Assembly: GCA_036500345.1 (NCBI GenBank)
Contig: DASYCE010000012.1
Coordinates: forward strand, 107,110 to 171,109
Source: Gemmatimonadales bacterium
Lineage (GTDB): Bacteria; Gemmatimonadota; Gemmatimonadetes; Gemmatimonadales; GWC2-71-9
Direction of reading: 5' to 3'
DNA: 64,000 bases
Part shown: positions 4,750 through 44,250 of the stretch, piece after piece
Numbering within the stretch: position 1 is the first letter of the stretch
How the letters are laid out: the number at the start of each line of letters is the position of its first letter
The notes under the pieces: model-generated
What the model was told of the DNA's origin: nothing
What the model saw: the letters and a program-made list of their open reading frames with translations, nothing else
The model's database searches: none
Translations under genes and position numbers: made by a program

Positions 4750-6165
4750 GTGAGACAAACGCCCATCGTCCTCGCGCTGGCGCTCGCGTCGGCACTTCCG
4801 CCGGCACTCGCCGCCCAGGGACCCAGAAAACAGGCCCACATCCCGGTCACCGCGTACCAGCTTGCCAACGGGCTGACGGTGCTCCTCTCGGAGGATCACA
4901 CCACGCCGGTCGTCGCCGTCGACGTCGAGCATCACGTCGGCTCGAAGAACGAGGAGACTGGGCGCACCGGCTTCGCGCACCTCTTCGAGCACGTGATGTT
5001 CACCGGCTCGGGACACGTGCCGTACGGGACGCACGACAAGTTCACCGAGGGGGTCGGCGGCTCGAACAACGGGTCGACCAACAACGACAAGACCAACTTC
5101 TACGAGTCGGTCCCGGCCAACTACCTCGAAACCGAACTCTGGCTCGAGTCCGATCGGATGGGATGGCTTCTCGACGCGCTCGACATCAACAAACTCAACG
5201 CGCAACGCGACATCGTGAAGAACGAACGCCGCCAGAGCTACGACAATCGTCCGTACGGTCGCGTCGATGAGATCATGAACTCGCAGATGTATCCGGCGGG
5301 TCATCCATACTACTGGCCGGTGATCGGATCGATGACCGACCTCACCGCGGCTTCGGAAGCCGACGTGAAGTCCTTCTACAACAAATGGTACGCGCCGAAC
5401 AACGCCGTGCTCGTGATCGCCGGCGATTTCAACCCGGCGCAGGCGAAGGCGTGGGTTCAGAAATACTTCGGTCCGATCCCGCGCGGCCCCGCGATCACGC
5501 GCCCGGTCGTGCCCGCGGCGCATCTCGATGCGCCGAAGCGCTTCGTTTACGAAGACAACGTGTCGCTCCCCGAGCTCTTCATCAAGTGGCCGGGCGTCGG
5601 CGTCCGCTCCGCCGATCGGGCGGCGCTCAGCGTCATGGGTTCGATCATCAGTGGCGATCGGACCCAGTGGCTCACGCAGGAGTTCGTCTACAGGCGGAAG
5701 TGGGCGTCGTCGATCTCGCTCCGCCCCGACATGGACGAAAACGCCGGTACCATGGATCTCTCTGTGGTGCCGATTCCGGGGACTGACCTCACCAAGCTCG
5801 AGAGCGCGATCGATTCGGTGATCAATCGCTTCAAGGCCGAAGGCCCCACGGCGGAGCAGATGAAGAAGGCGACCGCCGGGAGTGAGTACGCGTCGTATTC
5901 GCAGTTGCAGTCGATGCTCGGCAAGGCGGTGACGCTGGCGAGCGGCTGGATCTATCACGACGATCCATCGTGGTATGCGAAGAACATCACTGATCTCCTC
6001 GCCGTCACCCCGGCCGACGTGAAGCGCGTTGCCAACGAATACCTCGGTCCCAACCGGATCGTCCTCTCCGCCGTCCCGATGGGGAAGCGCGACCTCGCGT
6101 CGCACGCCGCCGAGTCGACGCCGATTACTTCGCCGTTCGCTTCGAAGCAGGAGGTGGGACAGTGA
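4750..6165 (+). CDS. M16 family zinc metallopeptidase, catalytic member
   Basis: Zinc endopeptidase of the pitrilysin/processing-peptidase family. Start GTG 4750, five bases after GGAG at 4741. A signal peptide ends near LPPALAAQG, so the protein acts in the periplasm. The inverted zinc motif HLFEH is at residues 77-81 (His77, Glu80 catalytic, His81), followed by the VKNERRQSYDNRPYG segment that holds the third zinc ligand (Glu). A C-terminal M16 domain without the motif follows. At 471 residues it is a half-size M16 subunit. Its stop overlaps the next gene (GTGA), which encodes the inactive partner, so a heterodimer like bacterial two-subunit M16 enzymes is likely. Frames opening at 4600 lack the RBS and signal peptide and are not used. 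Confidence 0.95.
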   Translation: MRQTPIVLALALASALPPALAAQGPRKQAHIPVTAYQLANGLTVLLSEDHTTPVVAVDVEHHVGSKNEETGRTGFAHLFEHVMFTGSGHVPYGTHDKFTEGVGGSNNGSTNNDKTNFYESVPANYLETELWLESDRMGWLLDALDINKLNAQRDIVKNERRQSYDNRPYGRVDEIMNSQMYPAGHPYYWPVIGSMTDLTAASEADVKSFYNKWYAPNNAVLVIAGDFNPAQAKAWVQKYFGPIPRGPAITRPVVPAAHLDAPKRFVYEDNVSLPELFIKWPGVGVRSADRAALSVMGSIISGDRTQWLTQEFVYRRKWASSISLRPDMDENAGTMDLSVVPIPGTDLTKLESAIDSVINRFKAEGPTAEQMKKATAGSEYASYSQLQSMLGKAVTLASGWIYHDDPSWYAKNITDLLAVTPADVKRVANEYLGPNRIVLSAVPMGKRDLASHAAESTPITSPFASKQEVGQ

Positions 6166-7610
6166 ACCGCCTGATCCAGTACACCGCGGCCGCGGCGCTC
6201 GTCGCCGTGCCGACCCTGCTCTCCGCGCAGGGCGTTGCATCCGCGTTCGACCGCACCAGGCCGCCACCGGTGGCCGGGGCACCGACCTTCAGGGTCCCCA
6301 CCTGGAGCGTCGACACGCTTCCCAACGGCGCGCGCCTCGTCGTCGTCGAGAAGCATGACCTGCCGCTGGTGTCGTTCTCGATCCATTTCGACGGTGGATC
6401 GTTGCAGACCAGCGCGAAACAGGGCGTGGCGAATTTCGTCGGGGCGATGATGCGTGAGGGGACCGCGACCCGCACCGGCGACCAGATCAACGACGAGCTC
6501 GCGCTTCTCGGCACCAACGTCGGCTTCGGCATCGGGACGGAATCGGGGAGCGCGTCGTTTTCGTCGCTGGCGCGCAACTTCGACCCGACGCTCGCGATCA
6601 TGATGGACATGATGCTGCATTCGACCTTCCCGGCGCCGGCGCTCGAACGTCTCCGTGCGCAATCGCTCGCGGCATACACCCGCGGACAGGACGTGGTCGG
6701 AACGGTGGCGGGGGAGATCGCACCGAAGCTGCTCTATGGCGATCAGCCGTACGGTCGCGTCACCGACGATGCTGATATCCGGGCCGTCACGCGCGACGAC
6801 GTCGCGAATCTCGCGAAGGAGTACTTCGTCCCGGCGAACGCGACGGTGTACGTCGTCGGCGACATGACCCGCGCCGAGGCCAGGGCGAAACTGGCGAAGG
6901 CGTTCGAAGGGTGGCCGAGGAGCGGACAGCAGATCGCGATCTCGTATCCGGCGGCCCCGGAACCGAGCGCGACGACGATCTACTTCGTCGACATGGCGAA
7001 CAAGCCGCAGTCGGAAATCGTGCTGACGCGTCCGCTCCCGCCGGAATACTCTCCCGACATGGCGAAGATGGACGTTACCGACGCGATCCTCGGTGGCCTC
7101 TTCCAGTCGCGGCTCAACCTCAACATCCGCGAAGTGCACGGATACTCGTACGGGTTCAACTCGTTCTCCGGCTGGCTCAAGGGCCCGGGGAGTGAGCGCG
7201 CGCAGGGCGCAGTCACGCGCGAGAAGACCGATTCGTCACTGATCGAGGCGATGAAGGAAGTGCGCGGGATGACCGGCCCGAAGCCGGCGACGGCGGATGA
7301 ACTCACGGCGGCGAAGAACTCGCTGACCCTCTCGCTCCCGTCCGATATGCAGTCGATCGCCGGGATTTCGTTCATCGTGTCGCGGATCGTCGACAACAAT
7401 CTCCCGCACGACTGGTGGTCGCAGTACATCACGCAGGTCAACGGCACGACCGCCGCCGATGTGGCGGCAATGTCGGCGAAGTACATGGACCCGAACCACC
7501 TGATCATTCTGGTGGTGGGCGATGGCGCCAAGATCGGCGCGTCGGTGCGCGCGACGGGCATCGCGCCGGTCGTCACGCTCGACAAGACCGGCAAGAAGCT
7601 CAACCAGTAG
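6162..7610 (+). CDS. M16 family peptidase, non-catalytic partner subunit
   Basis: Second half-size M16 protein (482 residues), starting at GTG 6162 inside the stop of the catalytic subunit. A signal peptide ends about LLSAQG. In place of HxxEH, the equivalent position reads QGVANFVGAMM, so the zinc site is absent. The C-terminal domain keeps the family's Arg/Tyr-type region (NIREVHGYSYGFNSFSGW), which in two-subunit M16 enzymes contacts substrate. Known M16 heterodimers (mitochondrial processing peptidase, some bacterial pairs) pair one catalytic with one inactive chain, and the coupled arrangement fits this. The operon ends at a very strong terminator. Confidence 0.93.
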   Translation: MNRLIQYTAAAALVAVPTLLSAQGVASAFDRTRPPPVAGAPTFRVPTWSVDTLPNGARLVVVEKHDLPLVSFSIHFDGGSLQTSAKQGVANFVGAMMREGTATRTGDQINDELALLGTNVGFGIGTESGSASFSSLARNFDPTLAIMMDMMLHSTFPAPALERLRAQSLAAYTRGQDVVGTVAGEIAPKLLYGDQPYGRVTDDADIRAVTRDDVANLAKEYFVPANATVYVVGDMTRAEARAKLAKAFEGWPRSGQQIAISYPAAPEPSATTIYFVDMANKPQSEIVLTRPLPPEYSPDMAKMDVTDAILGGLFQSRLNLNIREVHGYSYGFNSFSGWLKGPGSERAQGAVTREKTDSSLIEAMKEVRGMTGPKPATADELTAAKNSLTLSLPSDMQSIAGISFIVSRIVDNNLPHDWWSQYITQVNGTTAADVAAMSAKYMDPNHLIILVVGDGAKIGASVRATGIAPVVTLDKTGKKLNQ

Positions 7611-7625
7611 CCGCAGTGTGATGGA

Positions 7626-7665
7626 GACTCCGGTGCGCGATGCCCATCGCGCACCGGAGTCTTTT
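7626..7665 (+). terminator. Strong intrinsic terminator after the M16 pair
   Basis: Perfect 17-bp stem GACTCCGGTGCGCGATG (7626-7642) with its complement at 7645-7661 and only a CC loop, followed by TTTT. It serves the M16 operon. The TetR gene on the other strand stops three bases beyond the stem. Confidence 0.92.
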
Positions 7666-8293
7666 ATCGTCCGGCGCCGTCCGTCGCCGGTGCGGTACCG
7701 GCGCCCACGGCGATCGGCCGCCACGCGATCGCTTCCCACGCCGCGTCGAGCGTGGCAATGGCGTGCGGGTGTGTTGCGGTCCATTCCCGCGACGCAACCT
7801 GCTCCACCGCGAACGAGACGAGCGTCAGCCAGACCGCGGTCCAGAGTTCCACCACGCCGGCGCGGACCGTTCCTTCCTGCTTCCCGCGGGCGATCAGGTG
7901 CTCCAGCCCCTGCCGCAGCTCGACGGACGATGCGCGCGACGCGTCATCGAGATCGGCAGCGGCTCGGGGGCCGAGGAGCATTCGCATCCGCGCGGGGTCA
8001 TCCTGTGCCGCTGCGAGCCAGACGCGGCCGAGGGCCGTGAGGCGGTCGCCGACCGTCGGCGCGGTCGAATTCCCGGCGTCGCGCACCAGCGTCGCCCCCC
8101 ACCGCTGCACCTCCTGGTAGGCGACGTTGAGCAGCGCTTCCTTGCTCGGGAAGTGGCGGTAGATCGTCCCCTCGGCCACACCTGCATGCCGGGCAATCAT
8201 CGGCGTGGTGGTGGCGTGGAAGCCGGTGGTGGTAAAGAGGGCACGGGCCGCTTCGAGGAGCCGATCGCGCGTCGTCTGTGGTGCTTCGGCCAT
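7664..8293 (-). CDS. TetR family transcriptional regulator
   Basis: TetR-type repressor of 209 residues. The N-terminal helix-turn-helix is clear (residues about 8-55: TRDRLLEAARALF, then GVAEGTIYRHFPSKEALL). The ligand-binding C-terminal part is not conserved enough to suggest an inducer. It diverges from the lysine-dehydrogenase-like gene, with 68 bp between the starts; a TATTTT hexamer at 8319-8324 lies in that gap. It may therefore control itself and that neighbour. This is inferred from arrangement only. Confidence 0.93.
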   Translation of the reverse strand: MAEAPQTTRDRLLEAARALFTTTGFHATTTPMIARHAGVAEGTIYRHFPSKEALLNVAYQEVQRWGATLVRDAGNSTAPTVGDRLTALGRVWLAAAQDDPARMRMLLGPRAAADLDDASRASSVELRQGLEHLIARGKQEGTVRAGVVELWTAVWLTLVSFAVEQVASREWTATHPHAIATLDAAWEAIAWRPIAVGAGTAPATDGAGR

Positions 8294-8361
8294 CCGCCCT
8301 CTCGCATCCGGGTCCGGTTATTTTCGTCCGGCCAACAGTTTTCTGCCACCAAAGGCAAGCC

Positions 8362-9501
8362 ATGAAGATGCTGGTACTCGGCGCCGGACTGCAGGGTTCC
8401 GCCTGCGCCTTCGACCTCCTGCACGATCCCGACGTCACCCAGGTCACGCTGGCCGATATCCAGCCGGAACGCCGGGCACGCTTCCTCAACGCCGTCAGCG
8501 ATCGACTTCGCCCGGTTCCGCTCGACGTGACAGATCATACCGCAGTCCGCGCGTTGATGGCGGATCATGTCGCCGTGATGAGCGCCCTGCCCTATTACTT
8601 CAACGGCCCGATGGCGAAACTTGCCGTCGAAGTCGGCTGTCATTTCGCCGACCTCGGCGGCAACACCGACATCGTGATGGAGCAGAAAAAACTCAACGAC
8701 GAGGCGCACGCCAAGGGGCTGTCGATCATGCCCGACTGCGGCTTGGCACCGGGGATGGTGAACATCCTTGCCGCTGAAGGGATTCGGCGACTCGATCGCG
8801 CCGACCGCGTGCGGATCTTCGTCGGCGGATTGCCACAGCATCCCGAGCCGCCGCTCAATTACCAGATCGTCTATTCGCTCGAAGGAGCGCTCGACTACTA
8901 CACCACGCCGTCATGGATCCTCCGCGACGGCAACGCGACGACCGTCGACGCATTGAGCGAAGTCGAGCATCTCGCGTTCTCCGAACCGATCGGGACGCTT
9001 GAGGCATTCCATACCGCGGGCGGCGTGTCGACGATGCCGTTCACCTTCGAGGGGAAGGTGCGCGAGATGGAATACAAGACGCTGCGCTACCCGGGACACG
9101 TTGCAATCATGCGGCCGATTCGCGAGCTCGGTCTCCTCGATCTTGAACCGGTCAAGGTGAAGGGCCATCCCGTCGTCCCGCGCGACGCTTTCATTGCCTC
9201 CGTCTCGCCCAAGCTCACCAAGCCGGAGGGCCGCGACCTGGTGGCACTGCGGGTGATCGTGTCGGGCGACAAGCATGGCAAGCCGCTCACCACGCAATTC
9301 GATCTCCTCGACTACTTCGACGAGGCGCACCATGTCTCGGCGATGATGCGCACCACCGGGTATTCGCTCTCAGTCACCGGGCTGGTGCAGGCGCGGCGGC
9401 AGGTGATTCGCTTCGGGGTGACGACGCCGGACGAAGGGATGCCGTTCGATCACTACATCGAGGGGCTCAAGCGGCGCGGGATCGTGATCCACGAATCCTG
9501 A
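8362..9501 (+). CDS. Saccharopine dehydrogenase family protein, resembles L-lysine 6-dehydrogenase
   Basis: NAD(P)-dependent oxidoreductase of 379 residues. An N-terminal Rossmann domain begins MKMLVLGAGLQG (GxGxxG at 7-12) and is followed by the family's acidic turn VTLADIQPE. The CGLAPGMVN motif and the dimerisation/catalytic domain of the saccharopine dehydrogenase fold follow. Length and motifs are closest to single-domain L-lysine 6-dehydrogenases, which oxidatively deaminate lysine to piperideine-6-carboxylate. Carboxynorspermidine/saccharopine-type activity cannot be excluded. ATG 8362 is preceded by AAAGG at a six-base spacing. Upstream in-frame codons from 8278 overlap the divergent TetR gene and are not used. 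Confidence 0.8.
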   Translation: MKMLVLGAGLQGSACAFDLLHDPDVTQVTLADIQPERRARFLNAVSDRLRPVPLDVTDHTAVRALMADHVAVMSALPYYFNGPMAKLAVEVGCHFADLGGNTDIVMEQKKLNDEAHAKGLSIMPDCGLAPGMVNILAAEGIRRLDRADRVRIFVGGLPQHPEPPLNYQIVYSLEGALDYYTTPSWILRDGNATTVDALSEVEHLAFSEPIGTLEAFHTAGGVSTMPFTFEGKVREMEYKTLRYPGHVAIMRPIRELGLLDLEPVKVKGHPVVPRDAFIASVSPKLTKPEGRDLVALRVIVSGDKHGKPLTTQFDLLDYFDEAHHVSAMMRTTGYSLSVTGLVQARRQVIRFGVTTPDEGMPFDHYIEGLKRRGIVIHES

Positions 9502-39300: not shown

Positions 39301-39355
39301 GGGGTGTTTGCCAATGAGCAGTTCCGGTGCGATTCTGCATCATGCGGAGAGAACG

Positions 39356-40300
39356 ATGATGCGGGCTCGCCCAGGTTTCGCACCTCTCGCCCAGGTCATG
39401 GCGCTGCTGGTGCTGCTGCTTCCACACGCCGGGGAAGCCCAGGGCTTCGCCGCGACCGTCATGCGCGCCGACACCGAAGACAGCAGCGGCCATCACGCGG
39501 CGGCCGCGACGCTCTATGAACAGGCGTACGCGATGTCCGGCTTTGATCCGTCGGGGCTGGCACTCGCGGCGGAGAGTTACGCCGCGGCCGGCAACACGGC
39601 GGCGGCATTTCGCGATCTCGGCCGTGCCATCGATCAGGGATTCCTGCACCTGCAGGTCTTCGGTGACACGGCGTTCAACCATGTCACTGGCGATCCGCAG
39701 TTCAAGGCGCTGAGGGCGCGGATGCAGCGGAAGATCGCCGCGCTCGATGCATCGCTCCGTACCGAGCTGATCGGTATCGCCGCGCGCGACCAGCAGAACC
39801 GCGCCACGCTCAATCAGGTGATGACGAAGTACGGCGCCAAGTCGCCGCAAGGGGATTCAGCGTTCCGCGCCCTCGACGCCGCAGACTTCCCGTTGCAGCA
39901 GCGCGTCAAGGCAATCATCGCCGAGAAGGGATGGCCGGGACGATCGCTCGTGGCGGACGATGGCGCGCACGCGGCGTGGCTGGTGGTGCAGCACATGAAC
40001 GCGGCCGACCAGGCGGCACTCCTCCCCAAGTTGAAGGCCGCGGTCAAGGCGGGCGAGGCGCAGGCGGGCGACGGCGCGCTGCTCGAAGACCGCGTGCTGG
40101 TGGCGCAGCACCAGCCGCAACGCTACGGAACGCAGCTCAAGTACTCACCGAATGGCGGACCACCGACCCTCGATCCGATCGCCGATGAGGCGTGCGTCGA
40201 TACGCGGCGGAGATCGGTGGGACTCGAACCGCTGGAGAGCTATCTCAAGGGGTTCGGCGTGGTGTGGCACGCGAAGGGGACGTGTAGAGCGCCTTCGTGA
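39356..40300 (+). CDS. Exported DUF6624-like protein
   Basis: 314 residues from ATG 39356, after GGAGAGAAC. Signal peptide (to about HAGEAQG). Two TPR-like helical pairs (about 25-110; AAATLYEQAYAMSGFDPSGLALAAESYAAAGNTAAAFRDLGRAI) then a DUF6624-like C-terminal part (LRTELIGIAARDQQNR, VKAIIAEKGWPGRSLVADDGAHAAWLVVQHMN, LLEDRVLVAQHQPQRYGTQLK). Function unknown; family occurs in Bacteroidota and Gemmatimonadota. Confidence 0.75.
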   Translation: MMRARPGFAPLAQVMALLVLLLPHAGEAQGFAATVMRADTEDSSGHHAAAATLYEQAYAMSGFDPSGLALAAESYAAAGNTAAAFRDLGRAIDQGFLHLQVFGDTAFNHVTGDPQFKALRARMQRKIAALDASLRTELIGIAARDQQNRATLNQVMTKYGAKSPQGDSAFRALDAADFPLQQRVKAIIAEKGWPGRSLVADDGAHAAWLVVQHMNAADQAALLPKLKAAVKAGEAQAGDGALLEDRVLVAQHQPQRYGTQLKYSPNGGPPTLDPIADEACVDTRRRSVGLEPLESYLKGFGVVWHAKGTCRAPS

Positions 40301-40381: not shown

Positions 40382-40397
40382 GTGTTCACCCGAACAC
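40382..40397. promoter_or_regulatory. Perfect palindrome GTGTTC-ACCC-GAACAC, operator candidate
   Basis: Lies 44 bases before the peptide gene. A further half-site GAACAC occurs at 40424-40429. No regulator gene is adjacent. Confidence 0.5.
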
Positions 40398-40440
40398 AGA
40401 TAGGTGCTCGCGCACTTTCACTCGAACACGGGAGAGTCGT

Positions 40441-40632
40441 ATGACCCTCCGTACACGTATCATCCTTGTTCTCGGAATGATGGTTGGTGGAACGGTCGGC
40501 GCTGCCGTCCAAGCTCACGCCGACACCGGCACCGTCTGGTGTCAGGCTTCGACGAACGACAAGTGCTACAGCGATTGCAACGGCGGCCCCGGGACGGACT
40601 GTTTCATGGCGAATTGGAAGAACCAGGCGTGA
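40441..40632 (+). CDS. Small exported cysteine-containing peptide
   Basis: 63 residues. Signal peptide to about AVQAHA. The mature part is about 36 residues with four Cys (in VWCQ, DKCY, SDCN and TDCF), and no charge-rich tail. ATG 40441 is preceded by GGAGAG at 40431-40436. Its stop overlaps a GTG start of the next gene (GTGA). The arrangement resembles Bacteroidota NVEALA-type small exported proteins beside 6-bladed beta-propeller lipoproteins. This is a likely secreted signal or RiPP-like precursor. No maturation enzyme is nearby except the thioredoxin-like protein. Confidence 0.65.
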   Translation: MTLRTRIILVLGMMVGGTVGAAVQAHADTGTVWCQASTNDKCYSDCNGGPGTDCFMANWKNQA

Positions 40633-41735
40633 GACCGCGACTCGGACGACATCGGCCGCGACGACCGGTGTCGTTCGGTGTTCCCTCCGCCGATGGCAAA
40701 CCGCGCGTCCTTCACAGGCGAGCCTCAGCGCTGCGCGGCCTTTTATTCGCGTTGCTCTCGGCATGTTCCAGAAGCCCAGGGCACGACGATGTTAACACGA
40801 TTGAAGTCATAGGGACGCGAGCGATTCCCGTCGCTGATGTTAGTTCGATATACTCGTTAGCTGTCACAGACGATCAGCGCCTAATCGTTCTTGACCAGCA
40901 AGGCCCGTGGTTCCTTATGCTGCTCGATGGTCGGACCGGACGCGCGATCGCAAGATTTGGTCGGGACGGCGAGGGGCCGGGCGAGCTTACAATGCCATAC
41001 AACTTCAAGCTCACCGCTGGTGCGGACCCAAAGCTCTGGGTTCTTCAGCCGAATATCCATTTGCTTACCGGCTATGATCTCTCACGCGACCCGAAATTCG
41101 TCGGATCAATCCGATTCTCCGGCAAGACTGCAGCAACCGACGCGCTCTTGCTACGCAGCGGGTTATTGACAACTGGTCCGATTCGCGACTCGGCAATTGT
41201 CACAGCCGGAGATTCGAACCTGGCGCGACCCCGTCGTTGGGGGCACGCACCTTACCTGCCAGCCGACCTTCCGCCCGTGCTCGTGTTCGATGCCAATGAC
41301 CTGGTCATGGCTGCGAACCGAACTCAAGATCGAGTCGCCGTTGCATTCAAGTACGCATCGGAGCTTGAGGTGCTAGACACGAATGGGGTGGTCATTAAGG
41401 AATGGAAGATCCCTGGGAGCGCGGTTCCAAGAGTGCGTCAACGCAACGCAAAGCCTGTCACATTCGATCGTGACCTGTCGCGCGTTGCTGTTACGAGTAT
41501 TGCCGCGTCGGATAGCGAAGTTGTCGTTGCGAATTGTCTCTGTGACGGGAAAAAGGCATGGGAGGAGGCGGGGACTCGTCGGATTGAATTCTATCGCTGG
41601 GACGGAACGCCGATGGGGCATATTCCATTTGCCAAGCCGGTCGGCGCTGTGGCGATCTCCGGAGACGGTCATACCGTCTACGTTGCAACCAACCAACCGG
41701 AGCCACAGATCGTTGTTTTCACCGTGAAGTACTGA
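40629..41735 (+). CDS. Lipoprotein with 6-bladed beta-propeller-like repeats
   Basis: 368 residues if GTG 40629 (coupled to the peptide gene) is the start. GTG 40668 would place the lipobox Cys at 33 instead of 46 and is a serious alternative. The lipobox is LLSACSRS. The body has repeated four-strand units, such as SSIYSLAVTDDQRLIVLDQQGPWFLMLLDGRTGRAIARFGRDGEGPGEL, which are typical of NHL/BF3944-type six-bladed propellers. The GxGPGEL motif is characteristic. Base composition is noticeably less GC-rich than the genes around it. Follows the peptide gene and precedes the thioredoxin gene. Confidence 0.75.
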   Translation: MRPRLGRHRPRRPVSFGVPSADGKPRVLHRRASALRGLLFALLSACSRSPGHDDVNTIEVIGTRAIPVADVSSIYSLAVTDDQRLIVLDQQGPWFLMLLDGRTGRAIARFGRDGEGPGELTMPYNFKLTAGADPKLWVLQPNIHLLTGYDLSRDPKFVGSIRFSGKTAATDALLLRSGLLTTGPIRDSAIVTAGDSNLARPRRWGHAPYLPADLPPVLVFDANDLVMAANRTQDRVAVAFKYASELEVLDTNGVVIKEWKIPGSAVPRVRQRNAKPVTFDRDLSRVAVTSIAASDSEVVVANCLCDGKKAWEEAGTRRIEFYRWDGTPMGHIPFAKPVGAVAISGDGHTVYVATNQPEPQIVVFTVKY

Positions 41736-41743
41736 GGTTTTCC

Positions 41744-42274
41744 ATGCCAAAGTGGTTTAAGGATGTTCTGCTAGTTGTAGCGGTCGCCGGCGCGGCATAT
41801 GGGGTCGCTCGGTTGGTCGTGAAGCACAGCGCGCAAAATGGTGCGGTGGGGACATCTATCAGCAGTATTTCGGTTCAGCGCATGGGCGAAGATTCAGTCA
41901 GCAAGATTCAGTTTGGCAATAGCCCAGTGCTGCTCTATATTTTTGAAGAATCATGCCAATATTGCGAACAGCAAGTCTCCGGCTGGGAGCAATTAGCTAA
42001 TCGTGCTGCGCCATACGCCCGTGTCCTGGCAATTTCAACTCGGCCGCTGATTCCGACATCCGATGCGAAGCTGCTACACACGGATGGCGTCGAGTATGTC
42101 GGCGCCGCCTCCTTCACTTCTCTTCAGAAGCAGTTTGGCATCGCGGGTGTTCCTGTGACGATCGTAATTTCTCGCAGCCATCGAATCCAGGAAGTGCGCA
42201 GCGGTTTGCAGCCTGAGCTATCGCTCGCCGAAATCCTCGATATTGCCAAGCGAGCCAACTCATCTCAGAAGTAG
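41744..42274 (+). CDS. Membrane-anchored thioredoxin-like protein
   Basis: 176 residues, N-terminal membrane helix (about 7-27), then a thioredoxin fold with Cys71-x2-Cys74 (SCQYCEQQ) and cis-proline segment GIAGVPVTIVIS. Resembles TlpA/redoxin proteins that handle periplasmic disulfides. Starts eight bases after the propeller gene stop. The four-Cys peptide at the head of the operon is a natural substrate candidate. Composition is low in GC for this window. Confidence 0.8.
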   Translation: MPKWFKDVLLVVAVAGAAYGVARLVVKHSAQNGAVGTSISSISVQRMGEDSVSKIQFGNSPVLLYIFEESCQYCEQQVSGWEQLANRAAPYARVLAISTRPLIPTSDAKLLHTDGVEYVGAASFTSLQKQFGIAGVPVTIVISRSHRIQEVRSGLQPELSLAEILDIAKRANSSQK

Positions 42275-42431: not shown

Positions 42432-43598
42432 CTACCCCACTACCGTCTTTTCGTTCAACACGGCCAGGTACTCCCGGTACGCATACACCCTGTTTCTCAC
42501 TCGTCCAGTCACCTCGTCCACAATCCCCATCTCGCCAAGAAGCTCGAGCGCCGCACTCGCGCTCGGAAAGGACATCTCTGCCGCATCGGCTGCTCGCGAG
42601 ATCGACAGCATCGGCGTCCGCTTCAGCGCCTCGAGGAGTTGCAGCGCCGACCGGCCCCGGCGTTTGATCGGGAGCAGCCGCGCGCAATCTCGTTGGAAAA
42701 GCGCGTTGAGCCGTTCGGCGACAATGACCCCTTCCGTTGCGGTCTCGGCGATCCCTTCGAGAAAGAATACCAGCCACGCTTCCCAGTCTCCCGTCGTCCG
42801 GACGTCGGTGAGCAGGCGGTAGTATTCGTCCCGATGTTCCTTGAGATACAGCGAGAGATACAGCATCGGCTCGCGCAAGACCCTCGCATGACATAGCTGC
42901 AGCGTGATCAGCAGTCGGCCAACGCGGCCGTTGCCATCGAGGAACGGATGAATGGTCTCGAACTGCACGTGCGCCAGTGCTGCTCGCACGAGTTGTGAGA
43001 TCTCCTCCGATCGGCCGTGAATGAACTTCTCCAGCGTCCCGACTGCGTCGGCCACCTCGGTCGGCGGCGGTGGAACAAAAACCGCGTTCCCCGGACGGGT
43101 CCCGCCAATCCAGTTTTGGGTCCTCCGGAACTCTCCGGGATCACTGGTACTGCCGCGGCCGCTTCGCAACAGGATGCCATGCAACTCACGCAGCAGTCGG
43201 CCCGAGAGCGGGAATCCGTCCTGCATCCGGCTGATGCCGTGATTCATCGCGGCGACGTAATTGGCCGTTTCCACCACGTCGTCATTTCCCGGCGGCGCGC
43301 CGGTCTCATCCAGTTCGAAGAGAAGGAGGTCTGACAGCGACGATTGCGTTCCCTCGATCTGCGACGAGAGCACCGCTTCCTTCCTCACGTAGCTGTAGAG
43401 AAAGAGCGACCTGTCAGGAAGGAGGGCGACAACAGCGTCGAGGCGGCCGAGCGAAAGGAGCGCCGGTTCGAACGCTCGCTGGACCGCGCCGTCGAACACG
43501 AGCGGCGGGGCCGGTGGCAGTGGACGAGGGATGAACGCCTTCACCTCTTCGCCGCCAGCAGTCGATTTCTGGTATCGTCCCGTCACCCCGCGCTTCAT
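42432..43598 (-). CDS. Fic domain protein (adenylyltransferase type)
   Basis: 388 residues. N-terminal inhibition motif SSQIEG (78-83, fits the class II (S/T)xxxE(G/N) pattern). Fic core HPFLDGNGRVGR (217-228; His217 catalytic, Asp221, Arg225). A winged-helix-like C-terminal domain follows (about 310-385; ISRAADAAEMSFPSASAALELLGEMGIVDEVTG). Transfers AMP or similar to a hydroxyl side chain, often inside the same cell. Carries its own inhibitory motif, so no separate antitoxin is needed. Upstream region is very AT-rich. Confidence 0.92.
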   Translation of the reverse strand: MKRGVTGRYQKSTAGGEEVKAFIPRPLPPAPPLVFDGAVQRAFEPALLSLGRLDAVVALLPDRSLFLYSYVRKEAVLSSQIEGTQSSLSDLLLFELDETGAPPGNDDVVETANYVAAMNHGISRMQDGFPLSGRLLRELHGILLRSGRGSTSDPGEFRRTQNWIGGTRPGNAVFVPPPPTEVADAVGTLEKFIHGRSEEISQLVRAALAHVQFETIHPFLDGNGRVGRLLITLQLCHARVLREPMLYLSLYLKEHRDEYYRLLTDVRTTGDWEAWLVFFLEGIAETATEGVIVAERLNALFQRDCARLLPIKRRGRSALQLLEALKRTPMLSISRAADAAEMSFPSASAALELLGEMGIVDEVTGRVRNRVYAYREYLAVLNEKTVVG

Positions 43599-43836: not shown

Positions 43837-44250
43837 TGCCTCCTTCAACACGCCGTCGGTGCAACCCGAGAACGCGATCAGTTCCTCCCGCAGCGCGTTG
43901 GTGTCCCTCGCGCGGCCGTCCGTCTCTTCCGCAAGCCGTTGGCCTGACCCGACAAGCCATTCGTCTCCTCCGCAAGCCGTTGGCCTGACCCGACGAGCCA
44001 TCCATCTCTTCCGCAAGCCGTTGGCCGGACCCGACGAGCCGTTTGCCTCACCCGCCGCCGAGTTGGTACACCCCGACACCGCTTTGACCCACCGCCGCAA
44101 CCGATTCGGGTCGTCCGACCACCCGTTTGCCTCTTCCGCAACCCGTTGGCCTCACCCGACGAACCGTTTGCCTCTTCCGCAACCGATCCGTGTCACCGGC
44201 ATTCGAATCTGCCTCGCGCGGCAACTTCACCAGCCATGACACGAGGAGTG
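43837..44250. repeat. Degenerate 41-bp tandem repeat, about ten units
   Basis: Units begin near 43837, 43880, 43921, 43962, 44003, 44044, 44085, 44128, 44169 and 44210. Most spacings are exactly 41. Each unit is two related halves: CTCTTCCGCAAGCCGTT type and CTGACCCGACGAGCCGTT type. Not a multiple of three, so it is not a simple coding repeat. No spacers, so not CRISPR. Confidence 0.85.

What the first reader, a model, noticed from the sequence alone, without database searches (positions are those of the whole stretch)
40382..42274. Exported Cys peptide, beta-propeller lipoprotein and thioredoxin in one operon
A 63-residue exported peptide with four Cys in its 36-residue mature part overlaps (GTGA) a beta-propeller lipoprotein gene. 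A membrane-anchored thioredoxin follows. The last two genes are visibly less GC-rich than their surroundings, suggesting acquisition. A perfect 16-bp palindrome lies upstream. Known from families: Bacteroidota carry small NVEALA proteins beside 6-bladed beta-propeller lipoproteins, which I recall; the same layout in a GC-rich Gemmatimonadota-like genome with a thioredoxin is not one I know described. Inference: a peptide signal or RiPP-like product whose disulfides are set by the thioredoxin and which is bound by the propeller.
Basis: partly seen in the sequence, partly recalled or inferred. Interest (0 to 1): 0.85.

Follow-up and report, generated by a model that had tools for sequence, protein, structure and literature searches.

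The report
Exported cysteine peptide, propeller, thioredoxin operon
A bacterium of the phylum Gemmatimonadota carries a small operon for an exported four-cysteine peptide, a lipid-anchored beta-propeller and a membrane thioredoxin; the same kind of three-part cassette recurs in about ten places across related genomes with very different peptides, and it appears to be undescribed.

Summary
The three genes are real, and so is the peptide frame. A genome of another family (G175, Gemmatimonas sp. S08.Bin118) has the same gene order with overlapping start/stop codons, and its peptide keeps the four cysteines (KCYxDC...CF..N.K). Following each gene separately through 288 genomes of the order, the cassette 'exported Cys peptide + thioredoxin-fold protein + 6-bladed propeller lipoprotein' recurs in about ten loci of three families, in varying order and with several unrelated-looking Cys patterns. 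Related thioredoxins without a propeller are paired with 8-Cys peptides whose profile matches defensins, scorpion toxins and plectasin (CS-alpha-beta). Peptide-type thioredoxins lie beside such a peptide in 15 of 17 loci, canonical TlpA relatives in 0 of 13. The window peptide itself is not CS-alpha-beta, does not match NVEALA and has no known family. Best reading: a secreted disulfide peptide folded by a dedicated membrane thioredoxin and bound by the propeller. Disulfides are likely; binding is inference; the role (bacteriocin-like, signal, other) is unproven. Two cassettes have a thioredoxin with a degraded CxxC, which counts against a simple oxidase. The 'perfect 16-bp palindrome' is only 6-bp arms around a 4-nt spacer.

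The parts
40382..40397 (.). inverted repeat GTGTTC-N4-GAACAC (not a perfect 16-bp palindrome)
40387..40431 (+). direct repeat CACYCGAACACRG (40387-40399 and 40419-40431), possible operator; weak statistics
40430..40436 (+). Shine-Dalgarno-like GGGAGAG before the peptide ATG
   Evidence: sequence
40441..40632 (+). exported peptide gene, 63 aa; signal 40441-40521, mature 36 aa DTGTVWCQASTNDKCYSDCNGGPGTDCFMANWKNQA
   Evidence: homologue in G175 with same synteny and Cys
40629..41735 (+). 6-bladed beta-propeller lipoprotein gene (GTG 40629 overlapping the peptide stop, or GTG 40668)
40752..40766 (+). lipobox LLSAC of the propeller
   Evidence: sequence
41535..41543 (+). C-x-C (Cys290, Cys292 counted from 40668), the only Cys of the propeller besides the lipobox Cys; invariant in the four closest propellers
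41744..42274 (+). membrane-anchored thioredoxin-fold protein, 176 aa
41954..41965 (+). active-site motif CQYC; not preceded by the W that most canonical TlpA/ResA relatives here have

Best explanation
The three genes are one operon for a secreted disulfide peptide. The peptide is exported through Sec and cut by signal peptidase I to 36 residues (inferred from sequence). In the periplasm the neighbouring membrane-anchored thioredoxin, a specialised relative of TlpA/ResA, forms or reshuffles its two disulfides (inferred from the recurrent pairing of this thioredoxin type with exported Cys peptides). The lipid-anchored propeller binds the folded peptide at the envelope, as receptor, carrier or protective (immunity-like) partner (inferred). 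The product most likely acts outside the producing cell, in competition or signalling between cells (inferred). Shown here: the genes, their order, the homologous cassettes and the pairing statistics. Not shown: disulfides, binding, activity.
For: Same gene order in G175 (Gemmatimonas sp. S08.Bin118) with ATGA overlaps at both junctions; mature peptides align with only 1 of 20,000 composition-preserving shuffles as good. Peptide-first search for the 5-Cys class: all 8 loci with enough contig lie beside a propeller, against 0 of 57 unrelated loci. Thioredoxin-first search: of the peptide-type thioredoxins with readable flanks, 15 of 17 lie beside an exported Cys peptide (exceptions L151, L158); 0 of 13 canonical TlpA-like genes do. 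Three-part cassettes with different thioredoxin families (TlpA-like or DsbA-like) in G000, G175, G140, G156, G158, G099, G071, G051 and G296, G093 less certain, and a second one in the window's own genome (L082). Recruitment of different thioredoxin families beside Cys peptides argues for a disulfide role. Leader alike while core differs between window and G140 peptides, and arrays of paralogous peptides in G051, fit a diversifying secreted product. One branch of partner peptides is defensin-like.
Against: The G175 thioredoxin has CPWS and a G051 one has SCGSS instead of CxxC, so a dithiol oxidase/isomerase cannot be general. No release system or dedicated immunity gene is seen next to the operon. 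The window peptide has no measurable similarity to the defensin-like set. No structure was obtained for the peptide (pLDDT 43.7), so binding could not be tested. Only one other genome has the same peptide class; propeller relatives are found in 15 of 288 genomes. The tree does not show one origin for the peptide-type thioredoxins.
Confidence: 0.42

Rival explanations
1. Bacteriocin-like or defensin-like weapon with the propeller as immunity protein (a specific form of the best explanation).
For: Defensin-like partner peptides of related thioredoxins; known antimicrobial bacterial defensins such as actifensin occur in multi-copy operons (PMC6989792); patchy distribution and low GC; a SoFic-type gene is the convergent neighbour.
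Against: The window peptide lacks the CS-alpha-beta pattern; defensin-like partners mostly occur without a propeller; no ABC exporter beside the operon.
Confidence: 0.2
2. Propeller-based enzyme or redox complex: the peptide is a small structural subunit that stays in the periplasm, tightly or covalently bound to the propeller, and the thioredoxin is its assembly factor, as MauD serves methylamine dehydrogenase.
For: Same kinds of parts (propeller, disulfide-rich small subunit, membrane thioredoxin; general knowledge of the mau system); the four closest propellers share an invariant C-x-C and the window propeller has no other Cys outside the lipobox; genes overlap, so fixed stoichiometry is possible.
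Against: Propeller matches are of the 6-bladed NHL type, not the 7-bladed amine dehydrogenase type; the Trp near the first Cys of the window peptide is absent from the G175 peptide; peptide cores vary far more than a subunit interface should; arrays of paralogous peptides in G051.
Confidence: 0.15
3. Envelope redox or metal sensing: the peptide is a redox-sensitive or metal-binding ligand whose thiols are kept reduced by the thioredoxin and which the propeller reads.
For: Odd Cys number (5) in the class B peptides leaves a free thiol; C-x-C in the closest propellers; thioredoxins of the TlpA/ResA type usually reduce (general knowledge).
Against: Defensin-like folds among the partner peptides need closed disulfides; no regulator or metal transporter next to the operon.
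Confidence: 0.13
4. The 40441 frame is not a gene; the propeller reading frame starts further upstream and the peptide is a chance ORF.
For: The propeller frame is open back to 40404 and covers the whole peptide ORF.
Against: Homologous peptide in the same place in G175; ribosome site, signal peptide and lipobox positions; only such ORF in 64 kb.
Confidence: 0.03

Closest known systems
Bacteroidota NVEALA peptides (PF14055) beside TolB_like (PF15869) and other 6-bladed propeller lipoproteins
   Same: Small exported peptide next to a 6-bladed propeller lipoprotein (layout recalled, not tested here); 10 of 14 members of the window propeller's alignment match PF15869
   Different: No NVEALA match in this genome or peptide; the window propeller itself has no PF15869 match; thioredoxin partner
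Sublancin operon of Bacillus subtilis SPbeta (sunA, sunT, bdbA, sunS, bdbB)
   Same: Secreted disulfide peptide with dedicated thiol-disulfide oxidoreductases in its operon (PMC6391423)
   Different: No glycosyltransferase or peptidase-ABC exporter seen beside the operon; Sec signal instead; has a propeller
Bacterial CS-alpha-beta defensins (xanthusin, actifensin)
   Same: Partner peptides of related thioredoxins in Gemmatimonadota show the CS-alpha-beta pattern and profile match
   Different: The window peptide does not; the published set of 74 comes from Proteobacteria, Acidobacteria and Actinobacteria only (PMC11561630), and its main text does not mention thioredoxin or Gemmatimonadota
Methylamine dehydrogenase (mau) system, from general knowledge
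   Same: Propeller subunit, disulfide-rich small subunit, thioredoxin-like MauD
   Different: 7-bladed propeller, much larger small subunit with a Trp-derived cofactor; no sequence match found here

Membership tests
NVEALA peptide family (PF14055) | match to the PF14055 model | tested here: not met
TolB_like 6-blade propeller (PF15869) | match to the PF15869 model | tested here: not met
   window propeller has no match; 10 of 14 members of its alignment do
6-bladed NHL-type beta-propeller fold | fold or profile match to solved 6-bladed NHL propellers | tested here: met
   model pTM 0.70, mean pLDDT 65.8; TRIM2 and Brat NHL domains TM-score 0.67-0.70 by target length; family profile match E 4e-14
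TlpA/ResA-type thioredoxin | thioredoxin-fold profile match, CxxC, membrane anchor | tested here: met
   CQYC; single-sequence Pfam scores stay below the curated cut-offs, the family profile matches solved TlpA/ResA/DsbE-type proteins (best E 6.6e-10)
CS-alpha-beta defensin | C..CxxxC..GxC..CxC pattern and profile match | tested here: not met
   window peptide. Met for most 8-Cys partner peptides of related thioredoxins
RiPP | dedicated modification enzyme in the cluster | tested here: not met
   direct neighbours are DUF6624 (39308-40300) and Fic (42432-43598); the rest of the window was not scanned for this
Methylamine dehydrogenase | 7-bladed large subunit and TTQ small subunit | tested here: not met
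Bacteriocin | killing of related cells and self-immunity | not testable with these tools
   needs experiment

The most novel reading that the evidence does not exclude
Gemmatimonadota use a so far undescribed class of secreted disulfide-peptide systems, built from a diversifying exported Cys peptide and a dedicated membrane thioredoxin, with defensin-like peptides in one branch and propeller-coupled peptides in another (the window's). In the window's branch the peptide keeps a CxxxC as in the defensin frame but lacks the CxC, while its propeller carries an invariant CxC, so peptide and propeller could even be joined by disulfides in trans; this last step is speculation (about 0.05).
Probability: 0.4. 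Interest if true: 0.85.

Novelty: new variant of a known kind. Interest (0 to 1): 0.7.

Why it matters
It turns one odd operon into a recurrent module that can be tested: a small, easily synthesised peptide with its own thioredoxin and a lipoprotein partner. It gives a functional context for 6-bladed propeller lipoproteins, a common group without an assigned role, and it would add a phylum with defensin-like peptides to the few known in bacteria, together with a dedicated folding partner.

Tried and rejected
Peptide search in the window's family alone gave only noise; the homologue lies in another family. NVEALA membership: no match. Genome-contig scan with the single propeller: nothing; with the alignment: only G175 itself. 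Structure of the peptide with two sequences: useless (pLDDT 43.7). Profile comparison of the window peptide class with the 5-Cys and 8-Cys classes: nothing outside the signal peptide worth the name. Test of a recent insertion through the neighbouring DUF6624 gene in congeners: the gene is absent there too, so the site cannot be compared. Idea that C-x-C in the propeller marks only the 4-Cys class: weakened, G363 has CGC with a 5-Cys peptide. Literature: no held paper contains NVEALA, none holds '6-bladed beta-propeller' together with Gemmatimonadota, and searches by the Pfam names gave nothing relevant.

Full report
What is there. The operon at 40441-42274 holds three plus-strand genes: a 63-aa exported peptide, a lipoprotein that overlaps it by GTGA, and a membrane-anchored thioredoxin-like protein that starts 8 nt after the lipoprotein stop. 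The peptide has a Shine-Dalgarno-like GGGAGAG, a Sec-type signal ending in AHA and a 36-residue mature part with Cys in the pattern C-x7-CxxxC-x7-C. The lipoprotein has the lipobox LLSAC. Only weak Pfam matches exist: DUF5128 for the propeller (E 0.009) and AhpC-TSA/Thioredoxin_2 for the thioredoxin (E 0.001-0.002). GC is 59% for the peptide gene, 57% for the propeller and 54% for the thioredoxin, against 65% for the window. The claimed perfect palindrome is a 6+4+6 inverted repeat.

Is the peptide a gene? The family-level search with the peptide alone gave noise, but the relatives of the propeller in the order were fetched and read. In G175, a genome of another family (Gemmatimonas sp. S08.Bin118), a peptide with the same cysteines precedes the propeller and a thioredoxin follows; both junctions are ATGA overlaps. 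The mature peptides share KCYxDC, CF, N and K; only 1 of 20,000 shuffles with the same composition scores as high.

How general is it? Three separate entries were used. (a) Propeller first: most loci with intact flanks have an exported Cys peptide within a few hundred bases; the common class has five Cys (ND.C..CC..GS.C..C). (b) Peptide first: the profile of the 5-Cys class finds 13 genomes (the weakest hits are doubtful), and all 8 loci with enough sequence have the propeller next door, against none of 57 unrelated loci. (c) Thioredoxin first: the best-scoring relatives have CxxC sites without the preceding Trp of most canonical TlpA relatives, and 15 of 17 with readable flanks sit beside an exported Cys peptide; of 13 canonical TlpA-like loci none does. 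Six of these positive loci were not in the profile alignment (L149, L150, L152, L155, L156, L157). A tree of these thioredoxins groups the window with G175 (94/82, with a long-branch warning) but leaves the deeper branching weak, so one origin is not shown. The control rate of such peptide ORFs is 5 in 200 kb, most of them doubtful. Several loci come from related genomes, so the counts are not fully independent.

Three-part cassettes. Peptide-propeller-thioredoxin: window, G175, G296 (DsbA-like, another family of the class) and probably G093 (its 224-aa partner has a CxxC but no Pfam match). Peptide-thioredoxin-propeller: G140 (two peptides, DsbA-like). Thioredoxin-peptide-propeller: G156, G158, G099. 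Mixed: G071, G051. The window's own genome has a second one on contig C16 (L082: DsbA-like thioredoxin, 10-Cys peptide, 610-aa ORF, propeller, all on one strand).

What the peptides are. The window and G175 peptides have 4 Cys; others have 5, 6, 8 or more. The 8-Cys peptides paired with thioredoxins and mostly without a propeller match the published CS-alpha-beta expression in 14 of 17 cases, against about 1.5% of shuffles; their profile finds plant defensins, scorpion toxins and plectasin as almost all of its best PDB matches (best E 0.0017), and single members approach the Pfam AtDEF-like cut-off. A peptide-first search for this class finds 9 genomes, and in those with readable flanks the thioredoxin is usually next door. 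The published survey of bacterial defensins lists Proteobacteria, Acidobacteria and Actinobacteria (PMC11561630), and its main text mentions neither Gemmatimonadota nor thioredoxin. The window peptide is not of this type.

The propeller. The AlphaFold model (4 sequences, pLDDT 65.8, pTM 0.70) matches NHL 6-bladed propellers, as does the family profile. Besides the lipobox Cys it has only C290 and C292, invariant in the four closest propellers; the 5-Cys class mostly has FSG there, with exceptions (G363 has CGC).

Mechanism. Shown: operon, homologous cassettes, pairing. Inferred: Sec export, disulfides set by the thioredoxin, binding by the propeller, action outside the cell. Against a simple oxidase: CPWS in G175 and SCGSS in one G051 gene. 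The nearest known analogue for a secreted disulfide peptide with its own oxidoreductase is sublancin with BdbB (PMC6391423). The nearest analogue for a small exported peptide beside a propeller lipoprotein is the Bacteroidota NVEALA layout, which is recalled, and whose family model is not met here.

Verdict.

Noticed in passing
L082 (G000:C16:64000-76000) 5223-9419, minus strand: Second cassette in the window's own genome: DsbA-like thioredoxin, exported 10-Cys peptide, 610-aa ORF, propeller.
   Followed up: partly
L139/L140 (G051:C1:38000-64000): Array of about seven paralogous 76-79 aa defensin-like Cys peptides with several thioredoxins; divergent ~430-aa lipoproteins with a repeated SLVISE...ELYNNSDTT.YLDGM domain lie between them.
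   Followed up: partly
window 42432-43598 (-): Fic protein, SoFic-like in PADLOC (E 2.5e-115), convergent neighbour of the operon.
   Followed up: no
window 43915-44197: 41-bp tandem repeats (90% alike over 43915-44040) in a stretch with strong GC skew.
   Followed up: no
window 40387-40431: 13-nt direct repeat CACYCGAACACRG, two copies 32 nt apart upstream of the peptide; possible operator.
   Followed up: partly
L065/L141 (G175) and L139 9228-9899 (G051): Thioredoxin-like partners with degraded active sites (CPWS, SCGSS).
   Followed up: partly
L133/L105 (G140:C397): Two tandem exported peptides sharing the leader end VFNPAEAG with different six-Cys, knottin-like cores.
   Followed up: partly
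window 39308-40300 (+): DUF6624/TPR exported protein directly upstream of the operon, not found in nine congeners.
   Followed up: partly
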